NCBI GenBank assembly: GCA_030849805.1
Contig: JASANZ010002227.1
Location: forward strand, 17,219 to 81,218
Source of the DNA: Sergeia podlipaevii
Lineage: Eukaryota > Euglenozoa > Kinetoplastea > Trypanosomatida > Trypanosomatidae
Reading direction: 5' to 3'
DNA length: 64,000 nt
Positions 7,538 to 54,911 of this stretch are shown in pieces; position 1 is the first letter of the stretch; each line of letters starts with the position of its first letter. The position numbers and the translations under genes are program-made. The notes beneath the pieces were generated by a model. The model saw only the letters and a list, made by a program, of their open reading frames with translations. It did not search any database and was not told where the DNA came from.

Positions 7538-10500
7538 ATGTTGCCTCGTCGCTTGCGCTCGGCTTCTGGACAGGCTGCACGCCGCACCATCACAATGCTG
7601 GCGAGTGCCTCTCATTCAAGCTTTTCTTCTTTGTGTGATGCCACCACCAATGTCACTAGCATAAATGGTAACAGCAGCAGCCTTGAGGAGAGGATCGCGA
7701 GTAAGACTGCGAAAGCTATTTTGCGGCACATGGCTCCACCGATCACGACCCCCGCCACCGCACCATCAATGGTTGTTGCCACTACTCCGTTTTTACACAT
7801 GGGTAGTGGTAGAGACGGTGCGCTAAACCTTTCGCGGGTGCTGCTTGCGCCTCGTCGCCGCGCAGACACTACCGCCAGAGGCGCGACAGCGGCGGTGGGT
7901 GAATCCACGCGGGCTGAAGAAGAAGAAGCGGATGATGACGATGAGAACGGCGTCCCGCTTCCAGCCTCGCCCTTTGAATGTCCTATCGCGGCTGTACTTC
8001 CACCACCGCAGGAGGCAGCCGAGGCCGACACCCTCAGGGGTCTCGTCCACCTCCTGCTCGACCCTGAGGCAGAGAACATCGAGTTTGTGTCCATGCAGGA
8101 CTTCGTTGCAATGGTACCGCGGCGCCAGCTCAAGGCAGTCGGCGGCAACAAGGAATATCTGGATGTGCTTCTCGTTAGCGAGCAGTACAATGGATACAAG
8201 GACGCGCGCGCGCTGCGCCTCGCCGGCATTACGAACGTTGGGAAGTGGGAGGAGTGTCCTGATCGCGTCCCCATCTCGGCGTATTCACGTGGGGTCCTAG
8301 AGCAGGCCTATACTCGCATTGCGCGTCAGCCTAAGCAGGCGCAGAAGGACGAAGTCATCGCGTGGTTGACGAAGACGCTCCGTAAGGCGATGATGGAGGA
8401 GCTTGCAGCTGGCGCGCAAGGCGCCGTGACCGCGGATAGCAGTGGGATGCACACGCTGCTGCCGCTGTTAGGCGGAGTCACCACAATGGGGTCATCTTCT
8501 GCTTCTCTCGCCACCGCTGCTGCAGCTGGTTCTTCGGTTCTTGACGCGGCTGCCGGGGGAGCAGCAACCACAACGGAAGCAGTGGATGAGGTCATTGCAG
8601 AAATGACGAGGGAGGCGGAGCGGGAGCTCGGTGAGGTGGAGAAATCCGCGACCGCTGAGGCGCAGGGCCGCGCGGAGGACGAGCAGGACACAGGGAAGCC
8701 ACAGGAGGAAGCAGAAGAGGTAGCTGTGGAGGACGAGGATGAGATCGAACAGCCCAGCCGAAGCAGCGGCGGGGGTAAGCAAGGCCGCAAGACTGGTCAC
8801 CACCAGAAGGCGGCATCGCGCAAGAAGCCAGTCCTCGCTTCCCTGGAGGACTTTGAAGCGGTGGATGAAATCGCGCAGGAAGAAGACGAGGAAGGCGCAG
8901 CTGTTGAGGAGGCTGAAGTGGGCGATGGCGACGAGGATGATGGTGAGGTGGGTGCGGCCACGAACGCTGGCGCGGAGGCGCAGACGGAGGATGACCTTGA
9001 CGCGGAGATTGCCCGACTGATGGCGGAGGAGGAGGAGCATCATGCCCCTGCACCGTATGTGGCAGGTTCAGCGACGACGGAGGCGGCACCATCATCGTCA
9101 GCTGCTGCGGCATCTTCCGGTGCCTTCGCATCCTCAGCAAAGAAGAAGCAGAAGAGTGTGAAGGTCGAAACCGAGGAAGAGGACGAGGAGGTCATTGTGG
9201 AGGAGGAGGAGGTCGAAGAGGTGGAAGTGGTCGAAGAGGTTGAAGAGCATGAAGACGACGTCCCCGCCGCGACTGCTGCAACGAACGGCAAAGCTGCCCA
9301 AGTCACCACTGAGCCCGCAGTGGCGGCGGCGGCGGCGACCTCCCCAAGCCCTGCCTCCTCTGCCAAGAAGCAGCAGCTGGCTCGCCTTGCGGACCTGATG
9401 CTGCGCCAGTTTAACAGTGCGGATGGTTACCTGCACATCAACAAGCGTGACCGCAAGGCAGATGAGAAGAGTGGCTTTGTGCTCGAAATTGACGAAGACA
9501 CCGCACAGGTCGACCCCCTGACCCTCTTCAGTGCCTATCACTCCGCTGCTGTAGACGCGCAGAGCGACCCCGTGGCTGTGCGTGCACTCAAGCAAATCTG
9601 GTCCGCATACAACAGTCACCAGATGGCTCTGGAGGAGGCAGACGACGCCAAGACGGTGGAGTTCCACAAGCAGAAAAGCGTGGAGGCTCTTGTGCACGGG
9701 GCGGTATTGATGCGTGCGATCTCGCGCGAGTCCCCTGTGGTACCGGAAGCGGTGGTCGGCCTCCCCAGGTTTGGCTTTCCTCTTATCTCCTCAGATACGA
9801 GAGAGTTTGGGGCCAAGAGGCCTCGCTCTCTGCAGCACACGGACATGAACTCGGTGCGTGTGCTGGAGGCCATCAAGGCGTACAAGCACTTCTTCAGTGA
9901 TAAGTCCATCCGCTCTACGCCATTCCGTCCTCCGGTAGATCACAACTGCGGATGCTCCGTAGTGATGCTCTCGGGATCCACGCTGCACCTGTACGAGACA
10001 TCTACGAAGAGCTCGGTGCAAGAGGAGGATGTTCGCGGTCATTTTGCAGAGGCCATGCTCGGCGTGCTGCATGCGGTTCGCAATAAAATTTTACCCCGAA
10101 TCAACACGGTGCACTACCACATGCTTGTCACGATGCTCCCCGCTGCTGGAGAGGACGACGGTATGTCGAGCTCCATCGTCGGCATCGACCTCACCGGGCC
10201 TTTCACCACCGCGGAGCGCACTCGTCTGCGTGCACTTGCGGACCCACTGAGCATGGAGTACGAGGTGGACCAGTTCCACTGCATTGAAGACATCATTGCC
10301 GAAATAGAAGAAGTCGCTGCCGTCTCCGTTGTGCACGACCTTCTCCAGTCCCGCGACGATCTTGAGGCGCTGCTCACCCCAACTCTAGTTCAGCTCCTGC
10401 CAGAAGAGGGCGACGTGGTGCTGGACGATGAGGAGGAGGAGGTCCCCGCGGTATCTGCGACGACGAGTAAGCGCGCAGCAGCAGCGGAACACAAGAACGC

Positions 10501-11833
10501 CAGCAAGGCGGAAGACGCCGATGAAGAGGAAGCGGGAGAGGAAGACGAGGAGGACGTGCCTGTCTCATCTCGTCACTCCAAGCAGCAGCAAACTGGCAAG
10601 AAGCAGCAGAAGGCTCCCCCAGAGGACATAGAAGAAGACGAGTACATAGAGGAAGAGGAAGTCGGAGAAGAGGAAGAAGTTGTAGAAGAGGAAGAAGTCG
10701 TAGAAGAGGAGGAAGACGAGGAGCCGGTGCCGGTGGCGAGTAAGGGCAAGCAGTTCTCACGTGCTGCTGCCCCGGCGGCTGCTCCAAGCAAGAAGCCCGC
10801 CCAAAAGGTTCCCGTCAACGACGCGTATGAGGAAGAGATCGAGGCCGAGGTAGCTGAGGAGGAGGAGTTTGAAGAAGAGGAGGAAGCAGTAGCAGCTCAT
10901 CCACCTGCCCGCGGCAAGCCTAACCGTGCGGCAGCGGCGTCAACGCGTAAGCCTCAACAGCTGATAGAGGAAGAGGAAGAGGAGGAGGACGAAGAGGAGC
11001 TTGCGTCGCCGGCTGCTTCTCTTGCCCCGCCTCCACGCAGCAATGCGAATACCCGACGTAGCGTGGCCGCACCTCAGAAGACGACGGCGTCACCACTACC
11101 GCCAGCCAACGCTGCCGCGGACGATTTTGAAGAAGAGGAAGAGGACGAAGAGGAGCACGAGTACGACCGCGATTCTCGTCACCGGCAGCCCGTTAGCACG
11201 CGCAGCAGCGGCAGTCATAAGGTCACTAAGAACGCCGACAGGAAGGCAGCCCCGGCGGCCCCACCCCAGCCTCCTCATAAGCGCCAGCAGCAGCAGCAGC
11301 AGCAGCAACCCTATGAAGAAGAAGATGACATTGTAGAGGAAGAGAAGGAAATAGTATCTCCCCCCTCTCTTCCCCCGGCCACTAAGAAAGGAAACACGCC
11401 TGCCGCTCACGCTGGCCGCCGCGGAGTGCAACCGCCACCTCCTCCTTCATCCTCCTCCATACCCAAGCGCCGCACAGCCTTTGAGGCCCATGAGGATGAT
11501 GAAGAGTCAGAAGAGATCGTTTTACCGCGCAGGGCGAGCAAGAACGTTGTCTCTCCACAATTCGCGGTGTCGTCGTCGTCATCGCAGCAGCCCAGGCGCC
11601 AGTCAGTAGTAGTAGCGGATCCCAACGAGGAAGGAGTAGAAGAGGAACCTGTGGCCCGGCCTGTCAAGACACGTTCGACTCCACGTGGCAGAGGTCCAGC
11701 TGGACGTGCTCCAGTGTCGTCTGCACCACCCGCGCACGACCTCGAGGAGCGGGATAGTGCGGACGCTATGGAGCAGGAGCAGGAGCAAGATCAATGGTTT
11801 AAGAAGAAACCCAAGCGTAAGTACTTCAGCTAA
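7538..11833 (+). CDS. Large acidic mitochondrial protein, P-loop-less paralogue of the 387 gene
   Basis: 1431 residues starting MLPRRLRSASGQAARRTITM, a probable mitochondrial presequence that matches the start of the upstream gene. Domain A (about 161-270, with LVHLLLDPE and PRRQLKAVGGNKEYLDVLL) corresponds to LIDPAATG and PKRQLLALGGKKPWLEWLL upstream. Domain B (about 615-956) shares FPL(I/L)xSD, a PFRP motif, GC(S/D)VVxxSG and the ending TPTLVQLLP. The P-loop region of the neighbour is missing; in its place is an acidic Glu/Asp/Ala linker. The last ~470 residues are mostly poly-Glu blocks with scattered basic patches and a Gln run. Tandem arrangement, 1.09 kb apart, indicates gene duplication. 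Not recognised; a non-catalytic partner of the upstream protein is an inference. Confidence 0.8.
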   Translation: MLPRRLRSASGQAARRTITMLASASHSSFSSLCDATTNVTSINGNSSSLEERIASKTAKAILRHMAPPITTPATAPSMVVATTPFLHMGSGRDGALNLSRVLLAPRRRADTTARGATAAVGESTRAEEEEADDDDENGVPLPASPFECPIAAVLPPPQEAAEADTLRGLVHLLLDPEAENIEFVSMQDFVAMVPRRQLKAVGGNKEYLDVLLVSEQYNGYKDARALRLAGITNVGKWEECPDRVPISAYSRGVLEQAYTRIARQPKQAQKDEVIAWLTKTLRKAMMEELAAGAQGAVTADSSGMHTLLPLLGGVTTMGSSSASLATAAAAGSSVLDAAAGGAATTTEAVDEVIAEMTREAERELGEVEKSATAEAQGRAEDEQDTGKPQEEAEEVAVEDEDEIEQPSRSSGGGKQGRKTGHHQKAASRKKPVLASLEDFEAVDEIAQEEDEEGAAVEEAEVGDGDEDDGEVGAATNAGAEAQTEDDLDAEIARLMAEEEEHHAPAPYVAGSATTEAAPSSSAAAASSGAFASSAKKKQKSVKVETEEEDEEVIVEEEEVEEVEVVEEVEEHEDDVPAATAATNGKAAQVTTEPAVAAAAATSPSPASSAKKQQLARLADLMLRQFNSADGYLHINKRDRKADEKSGFVLEIDEDTAQVDPLTLFSAYHSAAVDAQSDPVAVRALKQIWSAYNSHQMALEEADDAKTVEFHKQKSVEALVHGAVLMRAISRESPVVPEAVVGLPRFGFPLISSDTREFGAKRPRSLQHTDMNSVRVLEAIKAYKHFFSDKSIRSTPFRPPVDHNCGCSVVMLSGSTLHLYETSTKSSVQEEDVRGHFAEAMLGVLHAVRNKILPRINTVHYHMLVTMLPAAGEDDGMSSSIVGIDLTGPFTTAERTRLRALADPLSMEYEVDQFHCIEDIIAEIEEVAAVSVVHDLLQSRDDLEALLTPTLVQLLPEEGDVVLDDEEEEVPAVSATTSKRAAAAEHKNASKAEDADEEEAGEEDEEDVPVSSRHSKQQQTGKKQQKAPPEDIEEDEYIEEEEVGEEEEVVEEEEVVEEEEDEEPVPVASKGKQFSRAAAPAAAPSKKPAQKVPVNDAYEEEIEAEVAEEEEFEEEEEAVAAHPPARGKPNRAAAASTRKPQQLIEEEEEEEDEEELASPAASLAPPPRSNANTRRSVAAPQKTTASPLPPANAAADDFEEEEEDEEEHEYDRDSRHRQPVSTRSSGSHKVTKNADRKAAPAAPPQPPHKRQQQQQQQQPYEEEDDIVEEEKEIVSPPSLPPATKKGNTPAAHAGRRGVQPPPPPSSSSIPKRRTAFEAHEDDEESEEIVLPRRASKNVVSPQFAVSSSSSQQPRRQSVVVADPNEEGVEEEPVARPVKTRSTPRGRGPAGRAPVSSAPPAHDLEERDSADAMEQEQEQDQWFKKKPKRKYFS

Positions 11834-15281: not shown

Positions 15282-16541
15282 ATGCATCTTCGCTGCTTTC
15301 TTCTGAGATACTACCCGCCGGGTATTACGCTCGAGTATGAGACATCCGCTGGCGAGATTGGACAACGGACGATTGATCTTCTTAGTCTCACCCCTACTAC
15401 TGATCTGGCGCGCATGGCGAATGAAATTATTGCCGCGGAGCCCCTGCTCTCACCAAAGTACAAGGATCACGTGGTTCAGTATCTCAATCGTCTGGTGGAG
15501 AAAATGCTCGCGGGCGCCAACCTTAAGCAGACGTTCTATCTGTTCAAGAGTCTGCGTGCGCACATGCTCCCTCTTACCAACTGTGCGTTCAACAAGGGCG
15601 GTGATAAGTTTGTTACTGGCTCGTATGATCGCACGTGCAAGGTCTGGGAAACATCATCTGGTAATGAGCTTGCCTCGCTTGAAGGCCACAGAAACGTAGT
15701 CTACTCCGTTGCATTTAACAATCCCTACGGCGACCGTGTGGTGACGGGCAGCTTCGATAAGACGTGTAAAATCTGGGACACCGCGACAGGGCAGTGCTTC
15801 CACACGTTGACAGGTCACATGACCGAGATTGTGTGCCTCTCTTTTAATCCCCAGAGCACACTGCTTGCCACCGGCTCCATGGACAACACGGCGAAGGTCT
15901 GGGACGTTGAGACTGGGCAAGAGCTGCACACACTGCTTGGTCACACCGCAGAGATTGTATCTTTGAACTTTAACACGTATGGCAACCTCATCGTCACCGG
16001 CTCGTTTGATCACACCGCGAAGCTGTGGGATGTGCGCACTGGGCAGACCGTGCACACGCTGCAGGCGCACCGCGGTGAGATCTCCTCCACGCAGTTCAAC
16101 TTTGCTTCTAACCTTGTCGTCACTGGTAGTATCGACCGCACATGCAAACTGTGGGATGTGTCGTCGGGGCAATGCATGGCGACTCTGCGCGGACACACAG
16201 ACGAAGTGCTGGATGTGGCCTTCAGTGTTACAGGAAACATGATAGTCAGCGCCAGTGCGGACGCAACCGCACGCGTGTTTAACACGGCGACGTGCAACTG
16301 CGTAGCGAGCCTCGTTGGTCACGACGGGGAGATCTCTAAGGTTCAGTTCAATCCTCAAGGCACCAAGATCATCTCCGCCTCCAGCGACAAGACGTGCCGA
16401 GTGTGGAACGTGGAGAACGGGCAGACGCTGCAGACGCTGACGGGGCACACGGATGAGATCTTCTCTTGCTCCTTTAATTATGAAGGAGACACCATCCTGA
16501 CTGGCTCAAAAGACAATACCTGCAGAATCTGGAAGAGCTAA
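15282..16541 (+). CDS. DAW1: ODA16/DAW1: WD-repeat adaptor for outer-arm dynein import
   Basis: 419 residues, close to the family's usual ~415-445. The N-terminus ([18 protein letters not shown]) matches the family-specific start of Chlamydomonas ODA16 and human DAW1 (WDR69). Eight WD repeats follow from about residue 90 to the end, each with GH...WD-type signatures; diagnostic blocks such as [16 protein letters not shown] and [16 protein letters not shown] are nearly as in ODA16. The protein acts in the cytoplasm and ciliary base as an adaptor between outer dynein arms and the IFT46 subunit of IFT-B, so that preassembled arms enter the flagellum. Its presence implies a motile flagellum with outer arms. 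The start follows a (TA)n/poly-A leader; the next in-frame ATG would remove the conserved N-terminus. Confidence 0.95.
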
Positions 16542-18188: not shown

Positions 18189-20078
18189 ATGCTACGGGTT
18201 CTGGCTGGAGGTGTTGCGGTGAGCGCAGCCAGCGCACCGTATCCGCTCTTCCATCGCTGCACTCGCCGCGCCTCGACAACGATTAACCCTCCTCCATTGT
18301 CGACCCCGCTGTCGGTGTCATCTTCATTCAGTGAGTTCTCCTTCAGCGTAGAACTTTCTATTCCACACCTCAAAGGTGGGGCACCACCCCCATCTTATCC
18401 CGCTTCCTCCTCCTCCTCAGTGAGCTCTGCGTGGCGCTGTGGAGGGGTGGAGGCGGACTACGCAAAATGGGTCGCCTTTCTCGCGTGCTGTGACGATGTG
18501 TTAAAGTCTAGACCAAGTTTTGTCGTGTTCCCGTGTAAGGAGCCGTACTTCTGCGATGACCCGTCAGGGCAGCGGCGCTCTACCATGCAGATGGCTGCTC
18601 AGTATGTGCAGGGGCATCGTCGTGGTGGCGTGCCAGCATGGATCACAGTGAACGCAACTATTCCCGCCTCGCATGATCAGCTTGATCATGCTTCTTCTGC
18701 AGTCTCCAATGGCACCAATACAGACCAGAAGGGATCCCTTCCTGTATCCTCCTCTGCAGTGAGTCCCTACAACGGAGGGGCCACGAGCGAAGGGGTACGA
18801 GATGTTCTGCGTGATTACGTTCTAGTCCGCGGTGGTAGTGGCTTGGTAGTGGTGCGTGGGGATGCGCAGCTTAGACGTCAGGATGGCGATAGCAGGGAAT
18901 TTCAAAGTGGTGCGGATCTTCTCAAGTGCGTCCGCGAGGAACTGGAGGCTCTCCTTGTAAAGCCTGAAGATACGCATTGCATTGGCGACAGTGACGGTAG
19001 TAAAGCATATACTTATAGTGAGGAGGAGAAGCAGCAGCAACAACAACAACATCAGTCACGTAGGGTGACGGTAGCGGTAGCAGGGTACCCTCAGGGTCAT
19101 TGGAAGGACCGGAGCTGGGCTGTACCGCCGCTCTTTATATCCTCCTCCTCCCCTTCATCTTCACTTCCATATTCATCAACTCTTAGCGTGTGGCCTTCAT
19201 CGATTCCGAAACCACGGGAAGTTGTGAAAGCAGAAACGATCTTGCAGCGAGTGCGTGCGGCACGACAGCTGCGTGAAGTGCCCTCCAGCTACCCTCCGGA
19301 GGTATCGCAGCGGTGCATCAGAGAACTGGTCACCGAGAAACTACTACCCTCCAGCACCTCGCCCGCGGTGCGCATGGCGGTGGTAACGCAGATGCTCACA
19401 AGTGCCGAGGAGTTCATTGCCTACGCACAGGACGTACAAGCGGAACTTAATAAGGCCGAAATGCCTGCGGTGGCAGCGACTGGTGGTGTTGGTAGGGGCG
19501 GAGGCGCGGTCAAGATCGTCCCTTCTCTCATTGTTCCAAGCGGTGGGGCGGAGGCCTACTCGATGGTGCTACGCTGGACACGCGTTATTCCCTCGGCACG
19601 TATTCTAGCAGCACTTGTGGCCTATGAAACCGCTCTTTCGACTGCTCTTCTGGAAGCAGCGGACGCCACGGAACGGGTATTGCTCCTGCAGTCACAGGAC
19701 GGAGGGGTAAGAGCAGGAAGTGCTGCAGCAACGATCGCCGAGGTAAGTAACACGCTGCCAACTACTAGAAGGAGCAGCAATAATGACAATTGTCCAGACG
19801 AGTCCCCGCTTCGTCCTATTAGCAATCCGTTGGTTTCCATTATTGGGATAGCGACACCAGAGTACGCAGTGGTGCTGGATCAACTAGAGAGGGATCGTAT
19901 GAAGCAGGAGGCTCGCTTTACGGATGAGTGGCATCGTGAGACCGTAGAAGTCGCGTGTGCGCTTGTGGACGCCGGACACAAGCACTTACACCTCATGGCT
20001 GTGGTCGGTGGGAGTGAAGTAGGAAGAGATCTGCAAGCACTCCTGACGGACATAAGCGATAGAAAATACTGTCGATGA
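18189..20078 (+). CDS. Mitochondrial MTHFR-like protein, copy 1 (key residues kept)
   Basis: 629 residues. The N-terminus (MLRVLAGGVAVSAAS, then Arg/Ser-rich) looks like a mitochondrial presequence. The rest aligns, with long inserts, to the methylenetetrahydrofolate reductase TIM barrel: FSVELS with Glu55 at the position of E. coli MTHFR catalytic Glu28; VVVRGD with Asp225 at Asp120 (flavin contact); AVAGYPQGH (297-304), which matches eukaryotic MTHFR; VVTQML with Gln401 at Gln183 (folate contact); then KIVPSLIVPSG and an ending like the last barrel helix. MTHFR reduces methylene-THF to methyl-THF using FAD. Divergence and inserts make true MTHFR activity uncertain. The regulatory domain of cytosolic eukaryotic MTHFR is missing. 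It is a tandem paralogue of the next gene. Confidence 0.75.
   Translation: MLRVLAGGVAVSAASAPYPLFHRCTRRASTTINPPPLSTPLSVSSSFSEFSFSVELSIPHLKGGAPPPSYPASSSSSVSSAWRCGGVEADYAKWVAFLACCDDVLKSRPSFVVFPCKEPYFCDDPSGQRRSTMQMAAQYVQGHRRGGVPAWITVNATIPASHDQLDHASSAVSNGTNTDQKGSLPVSSSAVSPYNGGATSEGVRDVLRDYVLVRGGSGLVVVRGDAQLRRQDGDSREFQSGADLLKCVREELEALLVKPEDTHCIGDSDGSKAYTYSEEEKQQQQQQHQSRRVTVAVAGYPQGHWKDRSWAVPPLFISSSSPSSSLPYSSTLSVWPSSIPKPREVVKAETILQRVRAARQLREVPSSYPPEVSQRCIRELVTEKLLPSSTSPAVRMAVVTQMLTSAEEFIAYAQDVQAELNKAEMPAVAATGGVGRGGGAVKIVPSLIVPSGGAEAYSMVLRWTRVIPSARILAALVAYETALSTALLEAADATERVLLLQSQDGGVRAGSAAATIAEVSNTLPTTRRSSNNDNCPDESPLRPISNPLVSIIGIATPEYAVVLDQLERDRMKQEARFTDEWHRETVEVACALVDAGHKHLHLMAVVGGSEVGRDLQALLTDISDRKYCR
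19243..19351 (+). repeat. 109-bp direct repeat, copy 1
   Basis: Base-for-base identical to 21908-22016 in the next gene, in the same frame, although the flanking coding sequence is strongly diverged. A second 54-bp block 19383-19436 matches 22069-22122 with only two mismatches. Confidence 0.95.
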
Positions 20079-20437
20079 TGCTGCGGCTGCTGGGGAGGGG
20101 GGGGGGAGGAGGAGGAGTGGGGAATAACTAAATAAAAGGAATAGTTAAAAGAAGGGCATAGTTTGTCTCATTCGCAACATCAAAAAAAGTGACTCTTCGT
20201 GTGTGTGCATGTATGGCGCTATTAGGCGTGGTGTCTACTTGATGCACCGAAGTAATACATGGAAACAACAACAGCAAAGGATATATCTAATGGAGTTCGT
20301 TTATTTAAATAAGGATAACTTCTTTGGGGCTTTATATATACTTTAAGTGTGTCTTTTCTGGAAAATAGTGTTATTGATGCTTTTCTTATATATATAATTT
20401 GCTGTTTTCTCTTTCTATCTTTATAAAATCATATAGT

Positions 20438-20458
20438 TGTGTGTGTGTGTGTGTGTGT
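20438..20458 (+). repeat. (TG)n microsatellite
   Basis: Perfect dinucleotide run between the two MTHFR-like genes. Confidence 0.9.
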
Positions 20459-20586
20459 TCTTTTTTTTAGTAGGCACCTCTATGCATACACAGACCTCCC
20501 TTGCTCATACACACATACTTCCAGTATGTTGGTATTCACTTTAAAAAAAACTAAACTAAACAAACACTACTTTGTTTTTTGCCATC

Positions 20587-20607
20587 TTTTTTTTTCTCCT
20601 TGACTAG
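20587..20607 (+). promoter_or_regulatory. Probable trans-splice acceptor of the 20650 gene
   Basis: T9/C/T tract then GACTAG, AG at 20606-20607; 5' UTR about 42 nt. Confidence 0.6.
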
Positions 20608-20649
20608 CACGCATACGCATATTAACACTCATTCATTCTCTTTGAGTCG

Positions 20650-22719
20650 ATGAAACCGTATAAGCGGACACCTACCCCGATGATAACACAAACCACACTG
20701 CTAGCTCGTCTACTCCCCTTTCTGAGATCATCATCATCGTCATCAACAGCACCGCTGCAGTCACGCGCGCACAAGAGGACAAGAGAAGACACAGATAAGG
20801 AGGAAGGTATCGAGGTGCTTGAGAGCGGCGGGCATTGCAGCTGTCCTTGTTCCTTCAGCTGTGTGGTAGTGCCACCACCAGTACCAGCCGCACGCGCTCG
20901 GTTTGAAGCACATGTCACGCAGCTGGTGCGCCATGTGCAGCCTCTTATCTTCATTACACTGACAAGTCACACGCCTTACTTTAATAGCGTCGATGCGGAG
21001 CGCGAGGCCTTGGCAGGCACGCAGCAGCAGCAGGAGGAGGAAGTAGCAGGCGGAGAATGGGAGAAAAGAGAAGGGGGGCACCTCGTCGTGTCTGCCACTC
21101 AGCAGGCCCTCTCGTTTGTCGCGTCTCTCTCCGTCAGAGAAGCACAAAGTAACTCAAACCACCGTAACACGGACTCTCCCTCCTCCCCCCCTCCTCCTCC
21201 TCCCTCCTTCTCTGCGGAAGCCTACACGCACGCAGTGCGGCAGATAAATGAACGATCATTCGCAGTCGTGCTTACTGTGACAGCGACGCGCGCGACAGCG
21301 GTCAGTAGTAGTAGTGGTGGTGGTAGCGGCAGCAATTCTCTCACAGGTGCCAGCAAGTCTGGTGTGAAGGCAGTCATGTCGGACTTTCTTAGGCGCATGA
21401 AGAAGTTGCCAGAGTGGGAAAAAGCTGAGGCCGCCGCTACTGCTGCTACTAGCGGCGATGGGTTAATGGTGCTTCGGGGAGATGACGGTGGGTACTGGCG
21501 TGATACGCAACTTTGCCATGAAGAAAATGCAGTAGACGGAGGTAAGACGACGTCGTTGAGTCCGTATAAAGACTTTGCAGATGGAACAGCACTGCTCTCC
21601 TTCATCGCCGAGACAGCACCAGACGTAGGTGGCGATGAACTTACCTTGTGCGTTGGCGGATACCCCCAGGGTCACTGCATGGACCGCATCTGGTGCTACG
21701 ATGATTGTTCTGAAACATGCGACGGTGGTACGGAGAAGGTACGGCGTGACACGCAAGACGAGCTGCGGTTTGCCTCATGGAAGTTTCTTGCTTTTTTGGA
21801 TAAGGCGCTTGCTGCTAGCGCAATCCCATACAGACCTCCAGCAGCAGCAACAGCGGCGGTGGAGTCAGAAACGATAGAAGAAATTGTGATCAAGTCGGAG
21901 AAGATTCTGCAGCGAGTGCGTGCGGCACGACAGCTGCGTGAAGTGCCCTCCAGCTACCCTCCGGAGGTATCGCAGCGGTGCATCAGAGAACTGGTCACCG
22001 AGAAACTACTACCCTCTTGCAGCACGCGTGCCGGGCACAGCGCTAGCGCTAGAGGAGCTGTAGTCGTAGTGACGCAGATGCTCACAAGTGCTGAGGAGTT
22101 CATTGCCTACGCACAGGACGTACTGAGAGAGGTGCAACGCGTGCGTAGCGAAAGTAATGGCCTCACCTCAAGTGGTTCATCTTCACTACTGCCAGCAGTC
22201 ATGGTAGTCCCTGGAGTCATGGCCCCACTGCGAGCCGAGGACCTGGCGCGGGTCTTGCTGCAGCTCAAAGTTATACCCGGCGAAGACCTCTACAGACTTC
22301 TTGTTACATATGAAGAAGAACTCACAGCGGCCATAGAGGCCCTGCGCTCTCTTTATAGAGCTTTGCCAGAAGGCTGGCAAGACGATGAAGAGCCAATCGG
22401 CAGACGCAGAAGGAGTAGTAGAGGAACTGAAGGTGATAGCGTGAATGATGATACCTGCACAACCGCTATTGGTACAATAAAGAAAGGGGCTCCGCAAGAA
22501 GCAGTGCGTGCATTTCACAAGCGGAAGGAGGCAGCTGAGCAGCGTTGCAGAGAGGCAATGGAACAGCTGACGTTGCGCTGGTGCCTGCGGCTGTGTGACG
22601 CCGGGTTTTACCACTTCAACTTCTCGGCTTTCAGCTATGATTGTGCATCGTCTCTTGCTCATGTAGCGCAGTGCATCCAGGAGAAGAGAAAGTGGAGCAC
22701 AGGCCCTTCCTGGGAGTAA
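20650..22719 (+). CDS. Mitochondrial MTHFR-like protein, copy 2 (catalytic Glu replaced)
   Basis: 689 residues from the first ATG; an internal Met11 (MITQTTLLARLLPFLRSSS) would start an even more typical mitochondrial presequence. It is a paralogue of the upstream gene with the same order of MTHFR-like blocks: FSCVVVPPP (69-77), LMVLRGD with Asp278, CVGGYPQGH (334-342), VVTQML with Gln476, VMVVPGVM, and a final barrel helix LCDAGFYHFNFSAF. At the position of MTHFR catalytic Glu28, which is Glu55 in copy 1, the alignment places Val72, so proton donation as in MTHFR seems impossible. Long Ser/Gly/Pro-rich inserts break up the barrel. The block 21908-22016 is identical in DNA to copy 1. A structural or regulatory partner of copy 1 is plausible but unproven. 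Confidence 0.72.
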   Translation: MKPYKRTPTPMITQTTLLARLLPFLRSSSSSSTAPLQSRAHKRTREDTDKEEGIEVLESGGHCSCPCSFSCVVVPPPVPAARARFEAHVTQLVRHVQPLIFITLTSHTPYFNSVDAEREALAGTQQQQEEEVAGGEWEKREGGHLVVSATQQALSFVASLSVREAQSNSNHRNTDSPSSPPPPPPSFSAEAYTHAVRQINERSFAVVLTVTATRATAVSSSSGGGSGSNSLTGASKSGVKAVMSDFLRRMKKLPEWEKAEAAATAATSGDGLMVLRGDDGGYWRDTQLCHEENAVDGGKTTSLSPYKDFADGTALLSFIAETAPDVGGDELTLCVGGYPQGHCMDRIWCYDDCSETCDGGTEKVRRDTQDELRFASWKFLAFLDKALAASAIPYRPPAAATAAVESETIEEIVIKSEKILQRVRAARQLREVPSSYPPEVSQRCIRELVTEKLLPSCSTRAGHSASARGAVVVVTQMLTSAEEFIAYAQDVLREVQRVRSESNGLTSSGSSSLLPAVMVVPGVMAPLRAEDLARVLLQLKVIPGEDLYRLLVTYEEELTAAIEALRSLYRALPEGWQDDEEPIGRRRRSSRGTEGDSVNDDTCTTAIGTIKKGAPQEAVRAFHKRKEAAEQRCREAMEQLTLRWCLRLCDAGFYHFNFSAFSYDCASSLAHVAQCIQEKRKWSTGPSWE
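21908..22016 (+). repeat. 109-bp direct repeat, copy 2
   Basis: Identical to 19243-19351. It encodes QRVRAARQLREVPSSYPPEV and onward to TEKLLP, a segment absent from bacterial MTHFR. Confidence 0.95.
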
Positions 22720-34641: not shown

Positions 34642-34687
34642 TTTCTGTTGTTGTGGTCGTAGTGATTGTAGTAGTGGTCAGTGTGTG

Positions 34688-35575
34688 ATGTCCAGCTGTG
34701 CATCTTCTAGTGAGGTGCATTACGTAGATGCCTTCATGCTGGAAGCCCTCAGAGAGGCTGCGGTCGCGCTGGCAGAAGGAGAGGTACCGGTCGGTTGTGT
34801 GCTCGTCCGCATCGACACGAATGAGCACTTTAACTCTTTCCAAGTGCCTCTGTGCGATGACACGCCGTGCAGCAACCACGACAATAGTACTAGTAATAAT
34901 AATAATGCCCGAAGTATTACGAATGACGACAGAAGTGCAGAATCGGTGCCGGCGCGGACTCATGAAGAAGCCGAAGACGGTACAGTAGCGATGAAGCAGC
35001 TAACACCACCTTTGCTGTCGCGAGGCCGGAATGCGACAAATAGACTTCACCACGCACTAGCTCACGCAGAGTTAGTTGCAGCCGAGGCGCTTTCTGTCTA
35101 CTCAGCCCAGCAGCAGCAGCAGCAGCAGCACCACCACCACGATGGAATCAATCACGACGACGATGGCAAGACTGAAAGCACCGCCATTCATGATCTCTCC
35201 GCCTACGTTCTCTACGTGACGGTCGAACCCTGCGTCATGTGTGCCGCCTTCTTGCTGTATCATCGCATTCGACACGTGTTCTTTGGCTGTGCAAACCCAC
35301 GCTTTGGCGGCAATGGAACCGTTCTTGCCCTGAACGATCCTGAACGAAACAACTTTAGTGGGTACCTCGGCACGTCTACCATGACAGAAACAGCAGCTTC
35401 CTCGTCGATGATGATGAGTGGTACAAGTTGCGGGTATCCCAGCGAAGGGGGGCACCGGGCGGACGAGGCGATCCATCAGCTTCAAGCATTTTACGGACGT
35501 GAAAATCCAAACGCCCCAGGGCACAAGCGGCGCCGCAAGCCGCCGGTGTCGTCCTCGGAAGCCGGAAGTGAATGA
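34688..35575 (+). CDS. ADAT2: tRNA adenosine deaminase catalytic subunit ADAT2 (Tad2)
   Basis: 295 residues from the ATG at 34688 (an upstream GTG in frame is not used). It is a cytidine/deoxycytidylate-deaminase-fold protein: ALAEGEVPVGCVLV start, zinc ligand and catalytic Glu in LAHAELVAAEA (His126, Glu128), zinc ligands in VEPCVMCAA (Cys182, Cys185), then RIRHVFFGCANPRFGGNG, which is ADAT2-specific. With ADAT3 it makes inosine at position 34 of cytosolic tRNAs; in trypanosomes the pair also takes part in C-to-U editing of tRNA-Thr. Two low-complexity inserts (about 55-105, and a Gln7/His4 tract near 141-155 between the motifs) make it longer than usual. The basic C-terminus HKRRRKPP corresponds to the Lys/Arg tail known to bind tRNA in T. 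brucei ADAT2. Confidence 0.95.
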   Translation: MSSCASSSEVHYVDAFMLEALREAAVALAEGEVPVGCVLVRIDTNEHFNSFQVPLCDDTPCSNHDNSTSNNNNARSITNDDRSAESVPARTHEEAEDGTVAMKQLTPPLLSRGRNATNRLHHALAHAELVAAEALSVYSAQQQQQQQHHHHDGINHDDDGKTESTAIHDLSAYVLYVTVEPCVMCAAFLLYHRIRHVFFGCANPRFGGNGTVLALNDPERNNFSGYLGTSTMTETAASSSMMMSGTSCGYPSEGGHRADEAIHQLQAFYGRENPNAPGHKRRRKPPVSSSEAGSE

Positions 35576-37234: not shown

Positions 37235-38680
37235 ATGGACAAAGATGACACACAGCAGCGGCAGGCCCTTATCGAGGGCTTCATCAACATGACCGACATG
37301 GACATGTTGGAGGAGAACAACGTGCCTATTTTCGGTCGTGGCCGCCCTGGTGAATACGGAGACAAAGACTATATCGAGATGGATGAAGACTATGTCTCGG
37401 AGGCAGGAGAGGGTCCACGCAAGCTTGCTGCTGGAGAAATCAAAGAAAACTCTAACATCTTCAAGTCCGCCTTCCACATCTTCAAGGCAAACGTTGGCAC
37501 TGGCGTGTTCATGCTGCCTACGTTCTACAAGGACTCTGGATACGTTGTCTCCGTAATTCTCGCTATTATGATCGGCATCGTAGTGGTGGACTGCACACAC
37601 ATGTTACTCAGAACCAAGATCAAGATCAACCGCCGTGACGTGTCCACCTATTCGCAGTTGTGCAACTACGTCTGCGGACCTGCCATGGGCTGGGTCCTCT
37701 TCGTCGCGCTGTGCCTAACACAGTTTGGTTTCTGTCTCATGTATTCACAGCTGGCGAGTGAGACGATGCAGGAGCTGGTTTCCATGAAGCACGGCCATTA
37801 TCTGTGGGTCAGTCTCGTTCTCATCATAGGCTACCCCATGTGCTGCTTCTCAGACAATCTCTCCCTGCTAGCCATCGCCACCTTCATCGCGACGATCGGC
37901 GTCTTCTACGCACTCATCAGCTGCTTTGTGAAGAGCTGCATGGTGTTGGGCAGCCTCCACGGTATTGACCCTACATGCAACGCTGCAGGTAAGAATATTC
38001 CTGTAGGTTGGTTCAACAATCTTGCCAACAATATGATGGTACTGGAGGGCATTGCTATCATTCTCCCCGTGCACGCCTCTTGCAAGCAGAAGAAGCTTCT
38101 GCCTCGCACAATTACTATCGTCCTCGGCGGAGTCATCTGCTGGTACTTGCTGTTTGGTCTCACTGGATACCTAGCCTTTGGTACGAGCCTTACTACGTCG
38201 CTTGTTTCCGCGATGAGCAAGGATGACTGGGGTGTCAGCATCCGGATTCTTTTCTTGCTCAACATCGTCTTCACTTATCCTCTTCAATACATGTCTGCCC
38301 AACAGCTGATCGATCAGCTGGTTGGATGCAAGCCGCGTAGTTGGATCGGGCTTGCCATTCGTCTTGGCATCAATCTTGTTATCTGGGCCCTTGCCATGGC
38401 GATGCCCGCTAGCGCTGTCAACGTCGTTGTGAATTTCATCGGTGCGCTGCCGTCCTGCTGCATGGTTCTGATCATTCCATCTATTCTGGCTTTGCATGTG
38501 GACTACGCCGTGGCGCACCCCGATGAAGACCGTAGTAGCCGCCACTACTGGAAAATGCTGGCGACTGGCAACGGCAAGTTTTTCACGCTTCAGCGTGTTA
38601 AGTCGATGTTGTATTGCATTATCGCACTGCTCATTATGGTAATTGGTACTTTCGCCATCATTCAAGGATTGGTATCGTAG
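37235..38680 (+). CDS. Amino acid transporter, AAAP family
   Basis: 481 residues. An acidic cytosolic N-terminus of about 70 residues precedes 11 predicted membrane helices. The first has the family signature FKANVGTGVFMLPTFYKDSG (about 82-101); helix 6 carries the conserved LEGIAIILPVHASC. The protein belongs to the amino acid/auxin permease family (Aa_trans, SLC36-like), which imports amino acids by proton or sodium symport at the plasma membrane or exports them from acidic compartments. Trypanosomatids have a large expanded set of these. Substrate cannot be read from sequence: candidates include neutral amino acids, proline or arginine. Length and topology are typical, and there is no sign of truncation. 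Confidence 0.92.
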   Translation: MDKDDTQQRQALIEGFINMTDMDMLEENNVPIFGRGRPGEYGDKDYIEMDEDYVSEAGEGPRKLAAGEIKENSNIFKSAFHIFKANVGTGVFMLPTFYKDSGYVVSVILAIMIGIVVVDCTHMLLRTKIKINRRDVSTYSQLCNYVCGPAMGWVLFVALCLTQFGFCLMYSQLASETMQELVSMKHGHYLWVSLVLIIGYPMCCFSDNLSLLAIATFIATIGVFYALISCFVKSCMVLGSLHGIDPTCNAAGKNIPVGWFNNLANNMMVLEGIAIILPVHASCKQKKLLPRTITIVLGGVICWYLLFGLTGYLAFGTSLTTSLVSAMSKDDWGVSIRILFLLNIVFTYPLQYMSAQQLIDQLVGCKPRSWIGLAIRLGINLVIWALAMAMPASAVNVVVNFIGALPSCCMVLIIPSILALHVDYAVAHPDEDRSSRHYWKMLATGNGKFFTLQRVKSMLYCIIALLIMVIGTFAIIQGLVS

Positions 38681-53774: not shown

Positions 53775-54911
53775 ATGTTTCGTCTCCGCGCTAGCATCAA
53801 TGCCCAGTCCGCAGTGCGGCTGTGCCAGGAAGCACTAGTCTTTGGCCGCAGTGGCTCCGTCACGTACCGCCCAGTAGGCTACGGGCTCACCATCTGCCCC
53901 AGCGTGTTTGCTGGTGCAGCAGCACGACAGTACTTTACTAGTAATGGGCCTGCTGCCTCTGGCATGCCCTCTAGCGCTGCGGCGATGCTGAGCACACTTT
54001 CAGGGTGCAAGGGGTCCAGCGTGGCATCTTCTGGATTTAGGTTTACTCGTGGTGGTGGAAGCGTGCAGGCGGGAGATGTGATTCTCACCAGCGTCTTTGG
54101 ACGCCGTCTAGGCACAATGTTCGCCCAGTACCGCCACGTGCGCGTGAACGGAAAGGCCGATGGCGACGCAGAGGCCAAGAACAAGGCTGAGGGTGGTGAG
54201 CAGGAGACGAGCGAGGGAGAAAAGTCTGAGGAAGAGGAGAAGGACGGCAAGAAGAAGAAGAAGAAAAAGCCGGCACAGAAGAAGACGCTGGGAGATCAGA
54301 TCCGCAGTCTCAAGGAGGACGTCGTTAAGTTTCCCGACATTTACAACAGTGCCAATCTCATCAACTTTATCATATTCACTGTCTTCTGCATCTGCAGTAC
54401 GGGCAGCAGCTCGGAAGAGCAGTGGTGGCTGACGCAATGGGGCCTTGACAACACCATGCATCCGCTTTCGTGGATCCTGCACAGCTTCCTCACTAACAAC
54501 TTCCTTTCCATGACTTTTGCGATGATGCTGCTGCACACCATGTGTCACGCTGTGCTGCCCTCGATCGGATCCCGTGGGCTACTTATCTACGTATGTGCCA
54601 CCGCACTCATCTCTGGCGTCATCATGTTCATCGGCAACCGCCTCTATTATGGTGACAAGCCGGCTCCTGAGAAACAGTTTGGCCCGTGGGACGTGATCAG
54701 CGCACTCTTTGTCATGGAGTACCTCCTCTACGGCGTCACTCCCATCAATATTCTCAACAGTTTCAACGGCTGGCTCCGGTACGCGTGCTGGGTGGGCGAG
54801 ATCTGCATTCTCTACTTCGATTGGCAGCCTACGCTGGTGGGTACCTTTGTGGGTCTCGCTCTCTGCAAGGGTCACCCCCGCTTCCGCGCTATGAAGGCTC
54901 CCGGCGCGTAA
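53775..54911 (+). CDS. Catalytically dead mitochondrial rhomboid-like protein (TimRhom type)
   Basis: 378 residues. The N-terminus (MFRLRASINAQSAVRLCQEA) is a good mitochondrial presequence; an acidic then poly-Lys linker (about 125-175) follows, and the C-terminal 185 residues hold about six membrane helices. The fold resembles rhomboids: WILHSFLTNNFLSM at the helix-2 His/Asn motif, GPWDVISALFVM at the GASG-containing helix, and DWQPTLVGTFVGLA at the AHxGGxxxG helix. The catalytic Ser position is Trp305 and the catalytic His position is Thr353, so it cannot be a protease. Trypanosomatids use two inactive rhomboid-like proteins, TimRhom I and II, in their single inner-membrane presequence translocase; this is the best fit. 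Which of the two it is I cannot say. Confidence 0.75.
   Translation: MFRLRASINAQSAVRLCQEALVFGRSGSVTYRPVGYGLTICPSVFAGAAARQYFTSNGPAASGMPSSAAAMLSTLSGCKGSSVASSGFRFTRGGGSVQAGDVILTSVFGRRLGTMFAQYRHVRVNGKADGDAEAKNKAEGGEQETSEGEKSEEEEKDGKKKKKKKPAQKKTLGDQIRSLKEDVVKFPDIYNSANLINFIIFTVFCICSTGSSSEEQWWLTQWGLDNTMHPLSWILHSFLTNNFLSMTFAMMLLHTMCHAVLPSIGSRGLLIYVCATALISGVIMFIGNRLYYGDKPAPEKQFGPWDVISALFVMEYLLYGVTPINILNSFNGWLRYACWVGEICILYFDWQPTLVGTFVGLALCKGHPRFRAMKAPGA

What the first reader, a model, noticed from the sequence alone, without database searches (positions are those of the whole stretch)
18189..22719. Tandem mitochondrial MTHFR-like pair: one copy keeps the catalytic Glu, the other has Val
Both proteins show MTHFR barrel blocks in order (xSVE or PP start, RGD, GYPQGH, TQ). 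Glu55 in copy 1 aligns with E. coli MTHFR Glu28; copy 2 has Val72 there. Asp120 and Gln183 equivalents are kept in both (Asp225/Asp278, Gln401/Gln476). Known MTHFR is cytosolic and ~300 residues for the catalytic domain; here there are long inserts and mitochondrial-type N-termini. This suggests an undescribed mitochondrial flavoprotein or an enzyme-pseudoenzyme complex.
Basis: partly seen in the sequence, partly recalled or inferred. Interest (0 to 1): 0.8.

Follow-up and report, generated by a model that had tools for sequence, protein, structure and literature searches.

The report
Paired MTHFR-fold proteins exchanging one segment
Two neighbouring trypanosomatid genes encode distant, poorly annotated relatives of the folate enzyme MTHFR, one with and one without the key catalytic residue, and in several species the two ancient copies have overwritten the same short segment of each other while the rest stayed very different.

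Summary

New here: A and B are 20-29% identical except in one block (helix, strand 6, helix) that is 85-99% identical within the window species, L. pyrrhocoris and L. seymouri; in the window it includes 109 identical bases. The block's tree groups A with B by species (AU p = 3e-10 against orthology); the flanks separate all A from all B. This is recurrent, segment-restricted gene conversion.

Mitochondrial location, flavin binding and an enzyme-pseudoenzyme complex remain inferences. Best reading: a divergent MTHFR-derived pair acting together, B unable to do folate chemistry.

The parts
18189..20078 (+). Copy A: divergent MTHFR-fold protein, 629 aa, keeps the catalytic Glu equivalent (Glu55)
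20650..22719 (+). Copy B: paralogue, 689 aa, Val72 in place of the catalytic Glu
18189..18332 (+). Copy A N-terminus, residues 1-48: 4 Arg and no Asp/Glu in the first 35, first acidic residue at 49; mitochondrial-type by composition (inference)
20650..20784 (+). Copy B N-terminus, residues 1-45: 3 Arg, 2 Lys and 12 Ser/Thr in the first 35, first acidic residue at 46; mitochondrial-type by composition (inference)
18351..18353 (+). Glu55 codon, equivalent of E. coli MTHFR Glu28, predicted strand 1
20863..20865 (+). Val72 codon, same column as Glu55, predicted strand 1
18531..18533 (+). Pro115 codon, at the Thr59 position by counting from strand 2 (Pro in 11 of the 11 A sequences that cover it)
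20962..20964 (+). Thr105 codon, at the Thr59 position by counting from strand 2 (Thr in 8 of 8 B sequences)
18855..18863 (+). Arg-Gly-Asp (223-225), equivalent of E. coli 118-120
21475..21483 (+). Arg-Gly-Asp (276-278) of copy B
19083..19100 (+). GYPQGH (299-304) at the end of strand 5 of copy A
21658..21675 (+). GYPQGH (337-342) at the end of strand 5 of copy B
19386..19391 (+). Thr-Gln (400-401), Gln183 equivalent, strand 6 of copy A
22072..22077 (+). Thr-Gln (475-476), Gln183 equivalent, strand 6 of copy B
19243..19351 (+). Gene-conversion tract 1 in copy A: 109 bases identical to 21908-22016
21908..22016 (+). Gene-conversion tract 1 in copy B
19386..19437 (+). Gene-conversion tract 2 in copy A (51 of 52 bases identical to 22072-22123)
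22072..22123 (+). Gene-conversion tract 2 in copy B

Best explanation
The two genes are an ancient tandem duplicate of an MTHFR-fold ancestor, kept as a pair in the window species, Leptomonas and Leishmania. Shown by computation: homology, predicted MTHFR fold, the fixed Glu-to-Val/Ala change in B, Pro in A where B has the Thr59-position Thr, and repeated gene conversion limited to one block (helix before strand 6, strand 6, start of the next helix). Inferred: both are imported into the mitochondrion. Both may bind FAD, because the RGD, Tyr152, His156 and Lys172 equivalents are kept. A is an MTHFR-type oxidoreductase with a remodelled substrate site. B cannot do the Glu-dependent folate half-reaction and serves as a structural or regulatory partner of A, possibly still able to accept electrons. 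The block stays alike because both copies need the same surface there, most simply for contact with each other or with one shared partner.
Against: No expression, localisation, cofactor or interaction data. His88 and the folate-contacting region after strand 7 look unconserved in both copies (read by eye from the alignment, not counted; which residues matter there is partly recalled), and A has Pro at the Thr59 position, so A may not reduce folates either. Conversion may be purely mechanistic, without a shared functional surface. In Leishmania the block is only 48-54% identical within a pair, so identity is not needed in every species. The A+B grouping of L. seymouri in the block tree has support of only 48. 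The models rest on 20-21 sequences with about 25% of residues under pLDDT 50, and whole-model Foldseek alignments are loose because of the inserts (TM by query length 0.24-0.34 and rmsd 8 A or more in the hits at E<=0.001). Sequence searches of the PDB did not find MTHFR.
Confidence: 0.45

Rival explanations
1. Both proteins are non-catalytic. An MTHFR copy was duplicated and co-opted as structural or RNA/protein-binding parts of a trypanosomatid mitochondrial complex; the barrel residues that remain hold the fold or a bound flavin.
For: Fast divergence (outside the block window A is 25-27% and window B 35-38% identical to their orthologues), long inserts, Pro at the Thr59 position in A, Val/Ala at Glu28 in B, and an ordinary MTHFR elsewhere in the genome for folate work.
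Against: Asp120 and His156 equivalents are kept in 21 of 21 and Gln183 and Lys172 in the 20 that cover them, more than a scaffold needs; Glu is kept in 10 of 10 A that cover it.
Confidence: 0.3
2. A is a true second MTHFR of the mitochondrion and B is an independent flavoprotein with a different reaction; they need not act together, and the conversion tract has no functional meaning.
For: A keeps Glu28, Asp120 and Gln183 equivalents. A passage of PMC10874023 says that the pathway under discussion, apparently serine-driven one-carbon metabolism, was localised to the T. brucei mitochondrion. Gene conversion in trypanosomatid tandem genes is a published theme (PMC1855330, search listing and start of abstract only).
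Against: The substrate region of A is remodelled (Pro at the Thr59 position; His88 and strand-7 region not kept, by eye). The tract falls on the same segment in three lineages.
Confidence: 0.2
3. The block similarity is strong purifying selection on the protein, not gene conversion.
For: The block contains the conserved Thr-Gln and a conserved Lys.
Against: In the window 109 bases are identical including silent sites. The block is 0.85-0.99 alike within the three species but only 0.34-0.55 between Leishmania, Leptomonas and the window species, whichever copies are compared, and its tree groups A with B by species.
Confidence: 0.03

Closest known systems
MTHFR / MetF catalytic domain (PF02219; E. 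coli MetF, PDB 1zp3; Thermus 1v93; human 6fcx)
   Same: Predicted barrel fold over about 260-290 residues; RGD, Tyr152, His156, Lys172 and Gln183 equivalents; Glu28 equivalent in A.
   Different: About 14-20% identity in the structure alignments; long low-complexity inserts; at least one extra helix between strands 5 and 6; Pro at the Thr59 position in A; Val/Ala at Glu28 in B; no MTHFR_C domain reported; window copies below the Pfam cut-off.
E. coli MTHFR Glu28Gln mutant (PDB 1zp4)
   Same: Catalytic acid missing, as in copy B; the mutant was used to trap methyl-folate in the crystal (PMC9900621, passages).
   Different: Copy B has a natural, conserved hydrophobic residue and a diverged substrate region; folate binding is not known.
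Two-domain MTHFR of the same genome (locus L002)
   Same: Another MTHFR homologue with an altered site: Arg in place of Asp120, Phe at Tyr152.
   Different: Scores 220 bits to PF02219 and carries the SAM-binding MTHFR_C domain; not part of the tandem pair.
Concerted evolution of tandem genes in trypanosomatids (T. brucei tandem arrays PMC1855330; Leishmania beta-tubulin PMC1533823; both seen as search listing with start of abstract only)
   Same: Tandem paralogues studied for gene conversion or concerted evolution.
   Different: Here the paralogues are 20-29% identical outside the block and only one short internal block is exchanged, repeatedly. How similar the genes in those papers are was not looked up.

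Membership tests
MTHFR protein family (PF02219) | Score above the curated cut-off (24 bits) | tested here: not met
   Window A 13.6, B 11.7 bits; of seven relatives scanned one by one, two pass, P0002 30.5 and P0004 27.6 bits.
MTHFR protein family (PF02219) | MTHFR-type (beta/alpha)8 barrel | tested here: met
MTHFR enzyme | Catalytic Glu (E. coli Glu28), copy A | tested here: met
   Glu55; Glu in 10 of 10 A-type sequences that cover it, 3 of 13 do not cover it.
MTHFR enzyme | Catalytic Glu (E. coli Glu28), copy B | tested here: not met
   Val72; Val in 7 and Ala in 1 of 8 B-type sequences.
MTHFR enzyme | Asp (120) and Gln (183) that anchor the pterin | tested here: met
   Asp 21 of 21, Gln in the 20 of 21 that cover it; role from PMC9900621 passages.
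MTHFR enzyme | Thr at position 59 | tested here: inconclusive
   By counting from predicted strand 2: Pro in the 11 of 13 A that cover it, Thr in 8 of 8 B. No residue-level structure alignment was available.
MTHFR enzyme | Binds FAD; reduces CH2-H4folate with NAD(P)H | not testable with these tools
   Needs protein.
Eukaryotic MTHFR | C-terminal SAM-binding regulatory domain (MTHFR_C) | tested here: not met
   No MTHFR_C hit for A or B at E<=10, where HMMER's filters drop most matches above about 0.1; it is found in L002 of the same genome.
Mitochondrial protein | Import signal and organelle location | tested here: inconclusive
   Composition of the N-termini only: first Asp/Glu at residue 49 (A) and 46 (B); in 12 relatives at 3 to 70, Porcisia A lowest; in 10 other window ORFs at 2 to 55, two of them beyond 30. 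No localisation data.

The most novel reading that the evidence does not exclude
A mitochondrial enzyme-pseudoenzyme heteromer built from two MTHFR barrels with reciprocally altered sites (A: Glu kept, Thr59 position Pro; B: Glu lost, Thr kept), in which gene conversion acts as a repair service that keeps one shared contact segment matched between partners that are otherwise about 20% identical, and where the reaction is not folate reduction.
Probability: 0.2. Interest if true: 0.8.

Novelty: new variant of a known kind. Interest (0 to 1): 0.52.

Why it matters
A gene pair that most deposits call 'hypothetical protein' in Leishmania and its relatives can now be given a predicted fold and a testable active site. 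Copy B is a natural counterpart of the E. coli Glu28Gln mutant, conserved across genera. The recurrent conversion of one segment between strongly diverged paralogues is a clean case for asking whether gene conversion maintains a shared interface.

Tried and rejected

Limits of the protein searches: each scored only about 8,000 candidates sharing most words. One search lists 17 proteins and misses P0006 and P0007, two B-type members that were in its own query, so absence from other trypanosomatids is not shown; 19 database members were found in all. P0019 was left out of the trees and of the copy B model, but kept in the counts although its sequence leaves the family at the GYPQGH motif.

Published work under gene identifiers: none for the pair in the main texts held. 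Searched were IDs for the L. major A gene, four Leptomonas genes and two Leishmania (Mundinia) proteins, and guesses for L. infantum, L. mexicana and a neighbour; the L. major B identifier is not known to me and was not searched. One search returned two papers, both about other genes. Supplementary files could not be searched. Searches on MTHFR with trypanosomatids, Leishmania or pseudoenzymes listed no title or abstract start about this pair; of those papers I saw only passages of PMC10874023 and PMC9900621. Endosymbiont or species check by rRNA: not completed.

(frame picking) failed in part and one search is superseded: several rows of its MTHFR alignment were read on the wrong strand. One search corrected this but kept two doubtful rows (L013, L039), as did. 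The merged alignment is unreliable around strand 2, so the Thr59 position was assigned by counting from predicted strands.
Full report
What is there. In-frame stops lie 6 and 8 codons upstream of the two ATGs. The window lies on contig C528 of a 23.4 Mb assembly in 576 contigs. All relatives with an organism name are Leptomonas, Leishmania, Novymonas or Porcisia; the species of the window itself was not identified.

Family assignment. By Pfam, the two proteins reach only 13.6 and 11.7 bits to MTHFR (PF02219, cut-off 24). Of seven relatives scanned one by one, Leptomonas seymouri P0002 has 30.5 bits and P0004 27.6 bits; the other five lie below the cut-off or have no MTHFR match. JGI already names P0004 '5,10-methylenetetrahydrofolate reductase'. 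Over 21 family members, MTHFR is matched in 19 at E<=1; the next family is matched in 3. A profile of six A-type sequences aligned to a profile of MTHFRs scores 77.4 (96% probability, 73 columns); 40 column-shuffled MTHFR profiles give at most 27.3 and the reversed one 19.1. The B profile alone gives 25.4 against a best shuffle of 23.7, which is not convincing by itself. B is however strongly homologous to A outside the converted block (score 208; best of 25 shuffles 20).

Active site. Counted over 13 A and 8 B sequences: the Glu28 column is Glu in 10 A (3 do not cover it) and Val (7) or Ala (1) in B. Arg118, Gly119, Asp120 and His156 equivalents are present in all 21; Lys172 and Gln183 in the 20 that cover them; Tyr152 in 20 of 21, the exception being the L. 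tarentolae model P0019, which departs from the family just there. At the Thr59 position, assigned by counting from predicted strand 2, A has Pro (11 of the 11 that cover it) and B has Thr (8 of 8). The His88 region and the segment after strand 7 that carries folate contacts look unconserved in both (by eye). Asp120 and Gln183 anchor the pterin and Glu28 is essential for the folate half-reaction (PMC9900621, passages). So A could be an oxidoreductase with a changed substrate site, and B is unlikely to do MTHFR's folate step. Neither was tested.

The pair is old. Outside the converted block, A and B are 20-29% identical in each of seven comparisons (two of them use sister taxa for the two copies), and the flank tree of 20 members puts all A on one side and all B on the other, with support 100. 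Pairs have adjacent locus tags in L. pyrrhocoris (ABB37_08153/08154) and L. seymouri (ABL78_3312/3313). In L. major and L. mexicana A and B lie on contigs of the same length. A WD40 gene precedes A in the window, and LmjF.10.0780, next in number to LMJF_10_0770 (A), is listed as the match of human APAF1 (PMC3417670, passage); that APAF1 has WD40 repeats is recalled. An amino acid transporter gene lies at 37235-38680, and L. infantum has such genes at LinJ.10.0760/0770 (PMC4637868, passage). This suggests shared gene order but was not aligned.

Segment-restricted gene conversion. In the window, 109 bases (19243-19351 and 21908-22016) are identical and a second tract matches 51 of 52 (19386-19437 and 22072-22123); no other exact match of 14 bases or more lies inside both coding sequences. 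At identical residues with synonymous choices, the codon is the same in 50 of 55 inside the block and 43 of 98 outside it. At the protein level the same block is 57/67 identical in the window pair, 75/76 in L. pyrrhocoris and 68/71 in L. seymouri; in four Leishmania comparisons it is 0.48-0.54. Between the two Leptomonas species the block is 0.80-0.83 identical, whichever copies are compared, so each was probably homogenised after they split. In the block tree A and B of each of these three species are neighbours (support 100 for the window pair, 89 for L. pyrrhocoris, only 48 for L. seymouri); forcing all A and all B apart costs 134 log-likelihood units (AU p = 2.9e-10), while in the flanks the forced tree is equal to the best. 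The likely minimum is three events; a fourth, older one before the Leishmania radiation is suggested by the joint grouping of Leishmania A, Leishmania B, Novymonas A and Porcisia A (support 76). By the models the block covers the second half of an extra helix, the helix before strand 6 with the Lys172 equivalent, strand 6 with the Gln183 equivalent, and the first half of the next helix. DNA was seen only for the window pair; the Leptomonas cases rest on protein sequence. No third genomic copy of the block was found.

Other MTHFRs in the genome. L001 is an ordinary single-domain MTHFR (304.7 bits); L002 is a two-domain MTHFR with the SAM-binding domain (220.4 bits plus MTHFR_C 167.7 bits) in which Asp120 is Arg and Tyr152 is Phe. 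Normal folate reduction therefore need not depend on the pair.

Location. A has no acidic residue before position 49, B none before 46, while the ordinary MTHFR L001 has one at 3. In 12 relatives the first acidic residue lies at 23 to 70, except Porcisia A at 3; among 10 other window ORFs it lies beyond 30 in two. This fits mitochondrial import without proving it. A passage of PMC10874023 says that the pathway under discussion, apparently serine-driven one-carbon metabolism, was localised to the T. brucei mitochondrion, which gives a plausible setting.

Judgement (my estimates). Fold and homology: about 0.97. Old conserved pair with Glu/Val swap: about 0.97. Gene conversion: about 0.95. Flavin binding in at least one copy: about 0.6. 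Mitochondrial: about 0.6. A-B functional partnership: about 0.4.

Noticed in passing
L002:133-2376 (minus strand), contig C205 of the same genome: A two-domain MTHFR (PF02219 plus MTHFR_C) whose Asp120 is Arg (RGR), with Phe at Tyr152 and no GYPEGH; possibly another non-canonical MTHFR.
   Followed up: partly
P0009, P0015, P0016 (Leishmania A-type models, P0016 = LMJF_10_0770): The deposited proteins start inside the conserved region, two of them at MSTTQ, so the stretch with the catalytic Glu is missing from the models although relatives have it; start annotation or real truncation could not be told without the DNA.
   Followed up: no
P0019 (Leishmania tarentolae A-type, 511 aa): The sequence leaves the family abruptly at the GYPQGH motif, as a broken gene or an assembly error would. 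Described only.
   Followed up: no
window 15282-16541: WD40 gene (8 repeats pass on their own) directly upstream of copy A.
   Followed up: partly
window 34685-35575 and 37235-38680: Cytidine/deoxycytidylate deaminase-type protein and an amino acid transporter downstream of the pair.
   Followed up: no
window 7538-11833 and 53775-54911: Two further ORFs with Arg-rich N-termini (5 Arg in the first 35 residues; first Asp/Glu at 34 and 19) and no Pfam match at E<=0.001.
   Followed up: no
G001:C18, G016:C20 and similar places in genomes of the phylum of G001: Open frames of about 250-420 codons that match only part of PF02219, weakly (about 19-43 bits), beside or instead of an ordinary MetF-type match.
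   Followed up: no
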